64,000 nucleotides of DNA. Source: Vibrio tarriae (GTDB lineage Bacteria; Pseudomonadota; Gammaproteobacteria; Enterobacterales; Vibrionaceae). A model generated the notes under the pieces. It had not been told where the DNA came from and ran no database searches. It saw only the letters and a list, made by a program, of their open reading frames with translations. The stretch covers positions 2,232,001 through 2,296,000 of the forward strand of contig NZ_CP022353.1 in NCBI RefSeq assembly GCF_002216685.1. The letters run 5' to 3'. The position numbers and the translations under genes are program-made. The stretch's first letter is position 1. Each line of letters starts with the position of its first letter. Below are positions 678-45,933 of this stretch, in pieces.

Positions 678-2029
678 TTACTGTGGTGCTCTCTCTTCCG
701 GTTGGGCAATCAAAGGCGCCTCAAGCGTGGGTTCAGAAATCGCAGGCACAGCACTCTCACTCTCTTGTGGCTCAAGCTCTACCGCACTTGAAAGCGGCTC
801 AGTTGCAACCTCTGTGGGTATGTTTTCCATGCTCGGCAGCACAGGCTCATCACTAAGATGGGGAGAGATAACACTGGGCTCCGCCACGGCTTCAGCAGGA
901 GCAACTTCGGTTGCTGCCGTGAGCTTAGACTTCATCCAAGCATTCAAAGCTAATGCCTGATCATCCGTTAAAATGCCGTTATGACCAGCAATCACACCAT
1001 CGGCCACAGCAAGTACCCACACCGCCTGACGGTTGGCATCTTCGCAACTTTGTACGGTTTTGCGGGCGTGCAATCTGGCGCGAATTTTCCAACCCGCCCC
1101 TTGCAATACGTGCATGCAGCCCGGTTTCGCATCGTGCTCAAGCAGCCACTGAGGGATTTTGACCACTTTATTACAATCACGCCCCGAGCACGGGTCCACA
1201 TCATGAGTGATTGCCCAAGAGTTACCCACGGCGCGCTCGCCATCTTTGATCCAGTTAAAGGCCTCACGTACCGCAAAATCGGTTTTGGACTGCAACACCA
1301 GCATGGATGGACCAAAACCTTCTGGACTCAACCACTTATCCAGCGGCTGATACTCTTTGGCAGAGGCTGCGGGGTTTAAAAGCACCGTTAAATGGGTTTC
1401 ACCGCGACCTGCCGCCAGATTATCCAACATCGCCTGTTTGCGGGCGTGCAGCGCAACCACACCACCCAAGCTGTGCCCAACTAAAATATAGCGCCCTAGC
1501 GTTCCTTGACGATGCAGTTCATCCAGCGAACTCAGCAGCTTTCTCACCCCATGCTCGCCAACTCTTCGCGCCACCTGCTTGCTGGTTAATATGGTCGGAA
1601 AATCCAATGCTTCCACTCGACTTTCAGGATCGTCTGAACCATCCAACCACAAGGGATCATATTGATCCCCCGCCAACCGATATACAGCCCGATGAGGTCA
1701 GGATTGGTCTTCGCCATCTGGCGATGAAAACGTTGAAAAGCGACAAAATTATCGTCAGTGGGAGCCGCATTATGGTGCCAACCGTGAATAAAAATCAGCA
1801 GTTCTGCTCCAGGGTTTTTGGCTAACCTCGCCTTCAACATCTCGTATTGCCCAGGCAGGTGCATTTCACCCTCATCATTAAATTCAATGACATGGAAATC
1901 AGACCGACTCAACTCAGGCGTGACTTGATGATAGGGCATATCGGGAATACGGGTAGACCAAATTGACAACGCGAGAACAGCCAGCAATACAACCTTAAAT
2001 AGGGCTATATTTTTCAAAAACTTACGCAA
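678..2029 (-). pseudogene. Alpha/beta-hydrolase (lipase-like), apparent one-base frameshift
   Basis: Two overlapping reading frames together make one hydrolase of about 450 residues. The N-terminal frame (start 2029) has a membrane anchor at about residues 4-25 and the oxyanion-side motif IFIHGWHHN. It reaches YIGWRG and then runs into unrelated sequence, stopping at 1586. The second frame continues with DQYDPLWLDG and the nucleophile elbow GHSLGG, and ends in a Pro/Glu/Ala-rich tail to 678. The switch falls in a run of five G on the coding strand (plus-strand C at 1667-1671); six G would join the frames. The second frame could in principle start alone at a TTG at 1676, but it would lack the first part of the fold. 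This may be a true mutation, a variable tract or a sequencing error. The substrate is unknown. Confidence 0.75.
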
Positions 2030-25894: not shown

Positions 25895-27265
25895 ATGATG
25901 AAAAAACCTTTACTTGTTTTAACTGCTCTGTCTCTTAGTTTGAGCGCGATTCTCTCGCCTTTGCCTGCAACTGCAGCGCTTCCTCTCTCAGTCAATGGAG
26001 AGCAGATTCCTAGCCTAGCCCCGATGCTTGAAAAGGTCACTCCCGCCGTGGTGAGCATCGATGTGGAAGGCACTCAAGTATCAAGGCAGCGTCTGCCGGA
26101 TCAGTTTCGTTTTTTCTTCGGACCGGATTTTCCGACCGAGCAACTCCAAGAGCGGCCTTTCCGTGGCTTAGGTTCTGGGGTCATCATTAACGCTGATAAA
26201 GGTTATGTCGTTACTAACTACCATGTCATTAATGGGGCTGAAAAAATTCGCGTCAAACTGTATGACGGTCGCGAGTTTGATGCAGAACTTGTCGGTGGTG
26301 ATGAGATGTCTGATGTCGCCTTGCTCAAGCTAAACAAAGCGAAAAACCTCACCGAGATCCGTATCGCGGACTCCGATAAACTGCGAGTCGGTGATTTTGC
26401 AGTGGCCATCGGTAACCCATTTGGCTTAGGGCAAACTGTGACCTCTGGCATTGTCTCAGCGTTAGGGCGTAGTGGTTTGAATATCGAAAACTTTGAAAAC
26501 TTCATCCAGACCGATGCCGCCATCAACAGCGGCAACTCAGGGGGTGCTCTGGTTAACCTTAATGGTGAACTCATCGGCATCAACACCGCGATCCTTGGTC
26601 CAAACGGTGGCAACGTAGGTATAGGTTTTGCCATCCCATCGAATATGATGAAAAATCTGACCGATCAAATTCTTGAGTTTGGTGAAGTGAAACGCGGCAT
26701 GCTTGGTGTACAAGGCGGTGAAATCACTTCCGAACTGGCTGACGCGCTCGGCTATGAATCCTCAAAAGGTGCTTTTGTCAGCCAAGTGGTTCCTGACAGT
26801 GCTGCGGATAAAGCTGGCATCAAAGCGGGTGATATCATTACGTCGCTGAATGGTAAAAAAATCGATACCTTCTCTGAGCTACGCGCGAAAGTTGCGACCT
26901 TAGGCGCAGGAAAAACCATTACTCTTGGAGTGCTGCGTGATGGTAAGAATCAAAATATTGATGTAACGCTTGGGGAGCAGCAAAATGCCAAGACCAAAGC
27001 AGAATCACTGCATCAAGGTTTGAGCGGCGCAGAGTTAAGCAACACCACTGACAGCGATCCTATTCAGGGCGTTAAGGTTACTGAGGTTCAAAAAGGCTCT
27101 GCCGCTGAATCTTACCAGCTACAAAAAGACGACATTATCATTGGCGTTAACCGTAAGCGGGTGAAAAATATCGCCGAGTTGCGTGCGATTATGGAAAAAT
27201 CACCGAATATTTTGGCATTGAACATCCAACGTGGAGAGAGAACGCTTTACTTAGTTGTTCGCTAA
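25895..27265 (+). CDS. degQ: Periplasmic serine endoprotease DegQ
   Basis: A DegP/DegQ-type protease-chaperone that clears misfolded envelope proteins. The 456-residue precursor has a signal peptide (to about residue 28) and the catalytic triad H110, D140 and S215 (GNSGGAL). Two PDZ domains follow, at roughly 260-350 and 370-450. The short LA loop between the first strands is more like DegQ than DegP. The start is a double ATG after GAGGAG. It has its own terminator before degS. Confidence 0.95.
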   Translation: MMKKPLLVLTALSLSLSAILSPLPATAALPLSVNGEQIPSLAPMLEKVTPAVVSIDVEGTQVSRQRLPDQFRFFFGPDFPTEQLQERPFRGLGSGVIINADKGYVVTNYHVINGAEKIRVKLYDGREFDAELVGGDEMSDVALLKLNKAKNLTEIRIADSDKLRVGDFAVAIGNPFGLGQTVTSGIVSALGRSGLNIENFENFIQTDAAINSGNSGGALVNLNGELIGINTAILGPNGGNVGIGFAIPSNMMKNLTDQILEFGEVKRGMLGVQGGEITSELADALGYESSKGAFVSQVVPDSAADKAGIKAGDIITSLNGKKIDTFSELRAKVATLGAGKTITLGVLRDGKNQNIDVTLGEQQNAKTKAESLHQGLSGAELSNTTDSDPIQGVKVTEVQKGSAAESYQLQKDDIIIGVNRKRVKNIAELRAIMEKSPNILALNIQRGERTLYLVVR

Positions 27266-27441: not shown

Positions 27442-28501
27442 ATGCTGAAATTTTGGGTTCGCTCAATCAGCCTTGGGTTGTTGGCTGCGATTGCCATTAT
27501 TATGGTGACACCCTCACTACGCGCCAAATTAATGCCCGTTGTCGAACAACCACGCAACATCGGCGCTCTACAAATCTCATTTAATGAAGCGGTACGCAAA
27601 GCCGCCCCTGCCGTCGTCAATATTTATAACCGTAAATACAGCGAAAATGATCGCCGTAAACTCTCGATTCAAGGTTTAGGATCCGGTGTCATTGTCAGCG
27701 AAAAAGGCTACATCATCACCAACTACCACGTCGTCGCGCAGGCCGATCAAATCGTCGTTGCTCTACAAGATGGGCGAGCCGCAGCAGCACAATTGGTGGG
27801 GAAAGATCGCCGTACCGATATTGCCATATTACGAGTAGAAGGCACGGGCTTACCGGTGATTCCACTCAATCCAGATTACCATCCCAAAGTCGGGGACGTG
27901 GTATTGGCGATTGGTAACCCTTACAACTTAGGGCAAACCACGACTTTCGGAATTATCTCGGCCACCGGACGTTCATCCATCAGCGCTGATGGTCGCCAAG
28001 CCTTTATTCAAACTGATGCCGCAATCAATGACGGCAACTCGGGTGGCGCATTGGTCAATACCCAAGGTGAACTGGTCGGCATCAATACCGCCTCTTTTCA
28101 ACAAGCCACCGATCTCGAAACTTACGGGATCTCGTTTGCGATTCCCTACTCTTTGGCCAGTAAAATCATGACCAAAATCATTGCTGATGGCCGCGTGATC
28201 CGTGGTTATATCGGCGTCGACGGTCAAGATATTAACTCGATGACGTCACGTCTTCTCGGTAATGAGCATGTCGGCGGGATCATTATTTTAGGCGTCGATC
28301 TCAATGGACCCGCAGCCCGAGCAGGCTTTATAGAGCAAGATATTTTGCTGAAAATCGACGGAAAAAAAAATTAATGGTCGCCAGAATGTCACGGATACCG
28401 TCACCGATCTTCGCCCCGGCACTGTGGTGGATTTCACCTTGCTGCGTAAAGGTGAAGAGATTGTACTCCCAGTTACGATTGGTGAAGACACTCGAGATTA
28501 A
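27442..28501 (+). pseudogene. degS: Site-1 protease DegS, frameshifted inside the PDZ domain
   Basis: DegS senses unfolded outer-membrane proteins through its PDZ domain and cuts RseA to release sigma-E. The N-terminal anchor (about residues 4-24) and the triad H96, D126 and S200 (GNSGGAL) are intact. A run of nine A at 28362-28370 shifts the frame, giving KIDGKKN and a stop at 28372-28374 after 310 residues. With eight A the frame would continue as KKINGRQNVTDTVTDLRPG to a TAA at 28499-28501, for 352 residues, close to the 355 of E. coli. The open frame as read is 27442-28374. Without the second half of the PDZ the domain probably cannot fold or bind peptides. A sequencing error in the homopolymer or slippage that restores the frame is possible. 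Confidence 0.88.
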
Positions 28502-44913: not shown

Positions 44914-44990
44914 TGGCGCGCTCGAGAGGATTCGAACCTCTGACCGCCTGGTTCGTAGCCAGGTACTCTATCCAGCTGAGCTACGAGCGC
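44914..44990 (-). tRNA. tRNA-Arg (ACG)
   Basis: 77 bases with encoded CCA. Acceptor stem GCGCTCG/CGAGCGC, D-loop AGCTGGATAGAG, anticodon ACG in loop CTACGAA, T-loop TTCGAATC. The adenosine at position 34 is expected to be edited to inosine. Last of eight tRNAs. Confidence 0.97.
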
Positions 44991-45061
44991 GCAATGTTTA
45001 ATGATTCGATACCGATATCTCAGTATCAGGGCATTACCCTTCTCTCTTAACGAGATAAAAG

Positions 45062-45138
45062 TGGCGCGTCCGAGAGGATTCGAACCTCTGACCGCCTGGT
45101 TCGTAGCCAGGTACTCTATCCAGCTGAGCTACGGACGC
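45062..45138 (-). tRNA. tRNA-Arg (ACG)
   Basis: Same body as the other Arg copies but with acceptor stem GCGTCCG/CGGACGC. CCA is encoded. With the copy at 44914 it forms a two-tRNA unit that is repeated next door. Confidence 0.97.
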
Positions 45139-45193
45139 GCAGGCTTTGATTGTTTTCACAATCGACTCCCGAAAATTCAGGAGCTTTAAATAG

Positions 45194-45270
45194 TGGCGCG
45201 CTCGAGAGGATTCGAACCTCTGACCGCCTGGTTCGTAGCCAGGTACTCTATCCAGCTGAGCTACGAGCGC
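45194..45270 (-). tRNA. tRNA-Arg (ACG)
   Basis: Identical to the 44914-44990 copy, acceptor stem GCGCTCG. The flanking spacer (ATTTAATGATTCGATAC...) is nearly the same as after the first copy. Confidence 0.97.
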
Positions 45271-45340
45271 GCAATATTTAATGATTCGATACTGATATTT
45301 CAGTATCAGGGTATTACCCTTCTCTCTTACGAGATAAGAG

Positions 45341-45417
45341 TGGCGCGTCCGAGAGGATTCGAACCTCTGACCGCCTGGTTCGTAGCCAGGTACTCTATCC
45401 AGCTGAGCTACGGACGC
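45341..45417 (-). tRNA. tRNA-Arg (ACG)
   Basis: Identical to the 45062-45138 copy, acceptor stem GCGTCCG, CCA encoded. Second member of the second two-tRNA unit. Confidence 0.97.
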
Positions 45418-45472
45418 GCAGGCTTTGATTGTTTTCACAATCGACTCCCGAAAATTCAGGAGCTTTAAATGG

Positions 45473-45549
45473 TGGCGCGCTCGAGAGGATTCGAACCTCT
45501 GACCGCCTGGTTCGTAGCCAGGTACTCTATCCAGCTGAGCTACGAGCGC
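45473..45549 (-). tRNA. tRNA-Arg (ACG)
   Basis: Acceptor stem GCGCTCG type, CCA encoded. The upstream spacer differs from the repeated units, so the duplication ends here. Confidence 0.97.
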
Positions 45550-45615
45550 GCAGGTTGTGAACTATATCACAAATATTTTCTTCTAGAACAAAAAAATTGA
45601 CCATAGGCCAATAAA

Positions 45616-45708
45616 TGGCGGTGAGGGAGGGATTCGAACCCTCGATACGGCTATAAACCGTATACTCCCTTAGCAGGGGAGCGCCTTCAGCCTCTCGGCC
45701 ACCTCACC
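45616..45708 (-). tRNA. tRNA-Ser (GCU)
   Basis: 93 bases with CCA. Acceptor stem GGTGAGG/CCTCACC, anticodon GCT in CTGCTAAG, and the long variable arm (TATACGG-TTTATAG-CCGTAT) that marks serine tRNAs. Confidence 0.97.
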
Positions 45709-45730
45709 ACTTTCATATTCCAGAAGAATA

Positions 45731-45807
45731 TGGCGCGTCCGAGAGGATTCGAACCTCTGACCGCCTGGTTCGTAGCCAGGTACTCTATCCAGCTGAGCTA
45801 CGGACGC
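45731..45807 (-). tRNA. tRNA-Arg (ACG)
   Basis: Acceptor stem GCGTCCG type, CCA encoded; placed between the two serine tRNAs. Confidence 0.97.
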
Positions 45808-45840
45808 GCTGTGGCTTATCGAAATAAGCATTGCAAGAAA

Positions 45841-45933
45841 TGGCGGTGAAGGAGGGATTCGAACCCTCGATACGGCTATAAACCGTATACTCCCTTAGCA
45901 GGGGAGCGCCTTCAGCCTCTCGGCCACCTCACC
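45841..45933 (-). tRNA. tRNA-Ser (GCU), first gene of the array
   Basis: 93 bases with CCA. It differs from the other Ser copy by one base in the 3' acceptor strand (CTTCACC), giving a G-U pair instead of G-C. The rest, including the variable arm, is the same. Confidence 0.96.

What the first reader, a model, noticed from the sequence alone, without database searches (positions are those of the whole stretch)
28362..28374. DegS truncated inside its PDZ domain by an extra A in a homopolymer
Nine A at 28362-28370 put degS out of frame; it stops after 310 residues with the protease triad intact but half of the PDZ domain missing. Dropping one A restores a 352-residue product with the normal DegS C-terminus up to 28501. 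In E. coli the PDZ domain both senses misfolded porins and holds the protease off, and removing it gives inducer-independent cleavage of RseA. A cell with this allele could therefore have altered sigma-E signalling. The long A-run is also a natural site for phase-variable switching, or for polymerase slippage that would yield a mix of full and short DegS from one gene.
Basis: partly seen in the sequence, partly recalled or inferred. Interest (0 to 1): 0.72.

Follow-up and report, generated by a model that had tools for sequence, protein, structure and literature searches.

The report
Private frameshift in Vibrio cholerae DegS
In this one cholera-bacterium genome assembly a stress-sensing protease gene is cut short at a run of nine As; the same assembly shows the same kind of break in an unrelated gene and a broken partner protease, so an assembly slip or a private recent mutation explains it better than a built-in switch.

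Summary
Nine A lie at 28362-28370; degS (27442-28374) stops after 310 codons with its protease triad intact, the distal PDZ half missing and the normal C-terminus in another frame. Intact copies exist in named V. cholerae proteins and in nearly all relatives examined. The run is not conserved in Vibrio (longest A-run 1-7 in 70 placed relatives), so nothing suggests an evolved switch. The sigma-E reading is weak: in the same assembly rseP, the next protease of the pathway, is also frameshifted, so a signal-blind DegS could not release sigma-E if both breaks are real. Residual indel error is now my leading origin: four frameshifts private to this assembly in 264 kb (degS, rseP, acetolactate synthase 3, a gene near window 1670), a btuF-like gene broken at another A9 run, and no trace of the ompU suppressor reported for degS-null V. 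cholerae. For a real event speaks a second PDZ change, Leu287 where 198 of 201 comparators have Pro. Another Vibrio has degS split near the protease/PDZ border by an IS200-like element. Verdict: a private, non-programmed frameshift, technical or biological; reads would decide.

The parts
27442..28374 (+). degS as written: 310 codons, protease domain plus first half of PDZ
28362..28370 (+). run of nine A where the frame is lost
28372..28374 (+). premature stop codon TAA
   Evidence: three-frame view
28370..28501 (+). normal DegS C-terminal coding sequence, in another frame, undecayed
   Evidence: TIGR02038 profile 310-350; identical to the P0001 C-terminus
28300..28302 (+). Leu287 codon (PDZ), where 198 of 201 comparators have Pro
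25895..27265 (+). upstream DegP/DegQ-like protease gene (456 aa), same order as E. coli degQ-degS
   Evidence: E. coli order

Best explanation
degS of this assembly carries a private, recent, non-programmed one-base length change in an unconserved A-run. It is either a residual indel of the assembly (somewhat more likely) or a replication slip in the sequenced clone. As written (shown) it encodes a DegS with the whole protease domain, a PDZ stopping after residue 309 of the normal protein, and a further Pro-to-Leu change in that PDZ. Inferred from E. coli: such a protein has lost the acidic contacts that hold the protease off and the second half of the PDZ, so it could not sense porin ends as usual and would be weakly active without a signal, or unstable. 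It would not by itself switch sigma-E on here if the rseP break is real, because RseP must cut RseA after DegS.
For: Private: full-length open frames in 44 of 45 other genomes with a match (61 searched incl. own, 15 without a match at 1e-80) and in 80 of 80 named loci; intact proteins named V. cholerae (P0002, P0003). Recent: downstream frame identical to P0001. Non-programmed: longest A-run 1-7 in the eight codons at the site in the 70 of 80 loci placed. Technical origin: (see rival 1). Mechanism: E. coli residues 317/319/320/324 fall beyond the break (contacts from PMC11642142 passages); [quoted passage not shown] The PDB holds DegS chains whose match ends at query residue 250-255, so the protease domain folds alone. 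Slippage-prone runs: most single-base indels of V. cholerae mutator lines fell in homopolymers and scaled with length (PMC5854121 passages). Pathway: rseP lies in two frames. mutS is open, so a mutS-null mutator need not be invoked.
Against: Leu287 at a near-invariant PDZ site hints that the PDZ was already drifting or under selection, so the frameshift may be more than chance. An insertion between protease and PDZ coding in G011 hints that such DegS forms can be tolerated. A8/A9 tracts act in V. cholerae phase variation in other genes (PMC3441752 passages).
Confidence: 0.83

Rival explanations
1. Assembly error: the length of the A-run is a residual indel and the isolate has an ordinary DegS frame. 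(This is one of the two origins inside the best explanation; I raised it from 0.45 to 0.55 after finding the btuF-like break on re-check.)
For: Four frameshifts private to this assembly in 264 kb against G138 (220 of 240 ORFs compared): degS, rseP, acetolactate synthase 3 large subunit, a gene near window 1670; none clear in G185 (141 of 145 ORFs compared, 160 kb). A btuF-like gene loses its frame at another A9 run: 249-aa frame matches BtuF profile 19-232 of 266, a 37-aa piece in another frame matches 235-263. The presumed ompU operator run and the ompU ORF are unaltered, though degS and rpoE deletion strains carried a suppressor in that operator.
Against: 4/220 against 0/141 is not significant (Fisher p 0.16); G138, also 2 contigs, shows about three breaks of its own. 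Six of 26 A9+/T9+ tracts examined lie at least 100 nt inside stop-to-stop frames of 100 aa or more, so long runs are not broken wholesale. Leu287 is a substitution, not an indel. A real slippage-prone strain would look the same.
Confidence: 0.55
2. Real PDZ-loss allele: the cell makes a stimulus-blind DegS and so an altered sigma-E tone.
For: All inhibitory contact residues are lost while the triad is intact; no ompU suppressor scar seen, as expected if some DegS activity remains; rpoE, rseA, rseB open.
Against: RseP of the same assembly lacks its second half, so sigma-E could not be released; half a PDZ may destabilise the protein.
Confidence: 0.2
3. Stepwise decay of the sigma-E proteolysis pathway: DegS and RseP were both lost in this isolate.
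For: Two successive proteases broken by separate lesions plus Leu287; at about 1% background the chance that one of the six pathway or control genes checked (rpoE, rseA, rseB, rseP, mutS, ompU) is also broken is near 5% (hand estimate counts).
Against: The known ompU suppressor is not seen; genes outside the pathway are broken too (acetolactate synthase 3, btuF-like, window 1670); a truncated V. cholerae RseP like this one was not among the 120 listed of 123 database hits.
Confidence: 0.12
4. Phase-variable switch or programmed transcriptional slippage at the A-run giving two DegS forms.
For: wbeL (A8) and manA (two A9) of V. cholerae O1 vary at poly-A tracts (PMC3441752 passages); an A11 tract in Citrobacter tssM1 gives about 20% transcriptional frameshifting (PMC4256274 passages).
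Against: The tract is not kept in the relatives placed; no mixture could be looked for; no precedent for degS in the listings of the searches made.
Confidence: 0.05

Closest known systems
E. coli DegS and its PDZ-lacking solved forms (e.g. PDB 3lgi, 2r3u)
   Same: Same protease domain and triad; inhibitory PDZ contacts missing
   Different: Here half the PDZ remains, with a Pro-to-Leu change; allele of one assembly, activity unmeasured
V. cholerae wbeL/manA poly-A contingency loci (PMC3441752, passages)
   Same: Frame lost at an A8/A9 coding tract in the same species
   Different: Those tracts are conserved in nearly all 37 O1 strains examined there and manA reversion was shown; the degS tract is not conserved among other Vibrio species and no reversal is known
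Citrobacter rodentium tssM1 transcriptional frameshifting (PMC4256274, passages)
   Same: A-run shortly before a premature stop, rest of the protein in another frame
   Different: Longer run (A11), two products shown; here one allele in one assembly and no RNA or protein data
degS split by an IS200-like element in another Vibrio (G011, L236)
   Same: Protease coding separated from PDZ coding
   Different: Insertion near residue 244 instead of a one-base change
Gene-fragmenting indel errors of long-read assemblies (PMC12007338, passages)
   Same: One-base indels, largely at homopolymers, that break genes in otherwise clean assemblies
   Different: How this assembly was sequenced is unknown to me

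Membership tests
DegS (site-1 sigma-E protease) | DegS model match above cut-off | tested here: met
   TIGR02038 540 bits, cut-off 423; the other DegS model NF008147 is just below its cut-off (396 against 408)
DegS (site-1 sigma-E protease) | His-Asp-Ser triad | tested here: met
   H96, D126, S200
DegS (site-1 sigma-E protease) | one complete PDZ domain | tested here: not met
   PDZ models matched in their first half only and below cut-off; so a truncated DegS allele, not a working member as written
DegS (site-1 sigma-E protease) | PDZ residues contacting loop L3 and Lys243 | tested here: not met
   positions 317/319/320/324 absent
DegS (site-1 sigma-E protease) | gene order DegP/DegQ-like then degS | tested here: met
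DegS (site-1 sigma-E protease) | N-terminal membrane anchor | not tested
   hydrophobic stretch visible in the ORF; no predictor run
Phase-variable contingency locus | long homopolymer in the coding region | tested here: met
   A9
Phase-variable contingency locus | tract kept in relatives | tested here: not met
   longest A-run 1-7 in 70 of 80 named loci placed, 10 not placed by my motif; other V. cholerae strains' DNA not available
Phase-variable contingency locus | reversible length change in one population | not testable with these tools
   no reads
Programmed transcriptional slippage | two products from one allele | not testable with these tools
   no RNA or protein data

The most novel reading that the evidence does not exclude
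The isolate has truly lost both steps of the proteolytic release of sigma-E: DegS is cut inside its PDZ and RseP before its second catalytic motif (motif name recalled), without the ompU suppressor found in degS-null strains. It would be a natural V. cholerae living with sigma-E permanently held by RseA, or freed by an unknown route.
Probability: 0.12. Interest if true: 0.6.

Novelty: new member of a known kind. Interest (0 to 1): 0.27.

Why it matters
If an error, it is a caution: this assembly shows two broken envelope-stress proteases that may not be broken in the cell. If real, it is a natural case for asking what sigma-E signalling is needed for outside the laboratory, and whether a DegS without its sensor half is tolerated. 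Separately, the cholerae group has Thr where the other DegS compared have Met or Leu at the peptide-clash position, which bears on how DegS is activated in this group whatever the frameshift turns out to be.

Tried and rejected
Programmed -1 ribosomal frameshifting: the native third frame gives an unrelated tail, so it would not yield DegS. mutS-null mutator: mutS open; other mismatch-repair genes not checked. Loss of rseA as compensation: rseA, rpoE and rseB open. ompU suppressor: the A-run between the presumed ToxR boxes has the length seen in 4 of 5 relatives (G137 differs) and the ORF is open; the TNAAA box motif and the placing of operator O1 at this run are recalled or inferred. In one search, 2 of 6 loci (G140, G137) were laid in the wrong orientation; one search corrected that for the run length only. 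Database search with the 43-aa downstream piece found 2 proteins (71 and 74 aa), uninformative. A 310-aa DegS cluster was not among the 120 listed of 2690 hits, but clustering at 90% identity may hide it. PMC7483581 proved irrelevant ('DEGs'). Structure prediction was never run.

Rows dropped: of the 6 frameshift rows of G138 against own I dropped SW_51473 (a break of G138) and S2_52964 (128 aa, with a long gap). Of the reverse 4 frameshift and 5 stop rows I count three as breaks of G138; the others look like antisense or start artefacts by my reading. Both rows of G138 against G185 were dropped (a short N-terminal piece; G138's own break), as was the one stop row of G185 against own. One search flagged 7; three had only terminal stops or start artefacts. 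The script labels '144 kb' for G138/G185 are wrong; 160 kb of each were compared. One search marked 4 candidate rows: degS, the btuF-like gene, and two rows on the antisense strand of degS and of L152, which I dropped.

Full report
What is there. The window is G000:C2:2232001-2296000 of a 4.12-Mb, two-contig genome. Among proteins with a source name, DegS of V. cholerae is nearest (97 and 95%), and V. mimicus, V. metoecus and Vibrio sp. HDW18 follow at 92-95% (records of this or a very near genome may be left out there), so I take it as V. cholerae or a very near sister. degS starts at 27442 and, at nine A (28362-28370), leaves its frame; it stops at 28372-28374 after 310 codons. The downstream sequence still codes the normal DegS end in another frame, identical to that of P0001, an intact 352-residue protein whose source is not shown. 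Within the 310 residues only 287 and 310 differ from P0001. Residue 287 is Leu here and Pro in 198 of 201 comparators (1 Thr, 1 Gln, 1 gap); the comparator sets overlap.

Relatives. Full-length open frames run through the site in 44 of 45 other genomes with a match at 1e-80 (61 searched with own, 15 without such a match) and in 80 of 80 named loci, 353-355 aa. In the genus-wide search with P0001 (225 of 227 genomes with any match, which includes DegP-like proteins; 2 without), every printed row but the window's reached residue 350 or beyond; later rows were not printed. I looked at three of those genomes by hand: G011 carries an IS200-like transposase gene (Y1_Tnp, 143 bits) between residue about 244 and the PDZ; G246 changes frame at residue 173/174 (draft, 91% complete); G105 has ten N inside degS. 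So a broken degS is uncommon but not unique.

The tract. In 70 of the 80 named loci my motif placed the site, and the longest A-run in the eight codons there is 1-7 (10 loci not placed); codons vary freely. V. cholerae DNA other than this genome was not available, so the species' usual tract was not seen. Genome-wide there are 33 distinct A9+/T9+ tracts. I examined 26 (loci of 30 of the 40 matches): 6 lie at least 100 nt inside stop-to-stop frames of 100 aa or more, and 2 show a long frame ending within about 20 nt behind the run with the family's remainder in another frame: degS and a btuF-like gene (BtuF profile 19-232 in one frame, 235-263 of 266 in the other). That the same fault appears at two unrelated A9 runs speaks for a fault of homopolymer length in the assembly, or for a slippage-prone strain, rather than for anything special about degS.

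What the lost part does. E. coli DegS is held off by PDZ residues 317, 320 and 324 contacting the protease, and Met319 clashes with loop L3 when a porin end binds (PMC11642142, passages). All four positions lie beyond the break. [quoted passage not shown] Hence the inference: weak, signal-blind activity, or an unstable half-PDZ protein.

The wider pathway. rpoE, rseA and rseB are open. rseP is not: a 226-aa frame matches RseP profile 1-214 and a 206-aa frame matches 247-450 of 450. The first holds the N-terminal M50 half, the second the rest with MLDGGHL. In 27 of 29 other genomes rseP is one frame; G105 has masked or unknown bases there and G010 is split. PMC8359247 (passages and section 6) says V. 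[quoted passage not shown] In the own genome the presumed O1 run has the length seen in 4 of 5 relatives and ompU is open. That speaks against a dead pathway, and so for error in rseP or for an unknown suppressor.

Is it an assembly fault? Over 264 kb of own and 280 kb of G138 sequence, 220 of 240 ORFs were compared and four are broken by frameshift in own as against G138 and G185: degS, rseP, acetolactate synthase 3 large subunit, and a gene at window 681-2029 (that last gene is also broken, elsewhere, in G138). About 62 per genome would follow (17-160). G185 shows none clear in 141 of 145 ORFs (160 kb), but the difference is not significant (p 0.16), and G138 has about three. The sample was chosen around degS, rpoE and rseP, so it is not random; the btuF-like break came from the tract census, not from this sample.

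Verdict. The sequence observation holds. The switch reading has no support here beyond the presence of a long A-run. The constitutive sigma-E reading is possible only if rseP is in fact intact. A private slip, technical more likely than biological, is the best account; reads decide. Odds changed on re-check: assembly error up from 0.45 to 0.55, the others down a little, because of the btuF-like break. Literature: I searched for degS frameshift in V. cholerae, degS with homopolymer, and the pathway and saw no report of this allele in the listings; most subscription papers are not held.

Noticed in passing
G000:C2 about 476395-477750 (L182:1492-2849): rseP (yaeL) lies in two frames, 226 and 206 aa; no run longer than four bases was seen near the break.
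   Followed up: yes
L149:1399-2227 (-) (G000:C2 near 339839): A btuF-like gene (vitamin B12 binding protein) loses its frame at an A9 run; BtuF profile 19-232 in one frame, 235-263 in another.
   Followed up: partly
P0001 residue 317 (window: beyond the break, in the 28370-28501 piece): At the E. coli Met319 position the cholerae group (P0001-P0004, L032-L034) has Thr, while 192 of 199 comparators with a residue there have Met or Leu (group); the steric-clash activation lever may differ in this group.
   Followed up: partly
L236:887-2690: In Vibrio G011 an IS200-like element separates the DegS protease frame (293 aa) from a PDZ frame (110 aa).
   Followed up: partly
window 681-2029 (-): A gene of about 450 aa (G185 length) is frameshifted here near 1670 and, at another place, in G138; no clear NCBIfam match.
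   Followed up: partly
L198:4838-6564: Acetolactate synthase 3 large subunit lies in two frames in the own genome.
   Followed up: partly
window 44914-45933: Cluster of eight tRNA genes, six Arg(acg) and two Ser(gct).
   Followed up: no
L237 (G246): degS changes frame at residue 173/174 in a draft genome.
   Followed up: no
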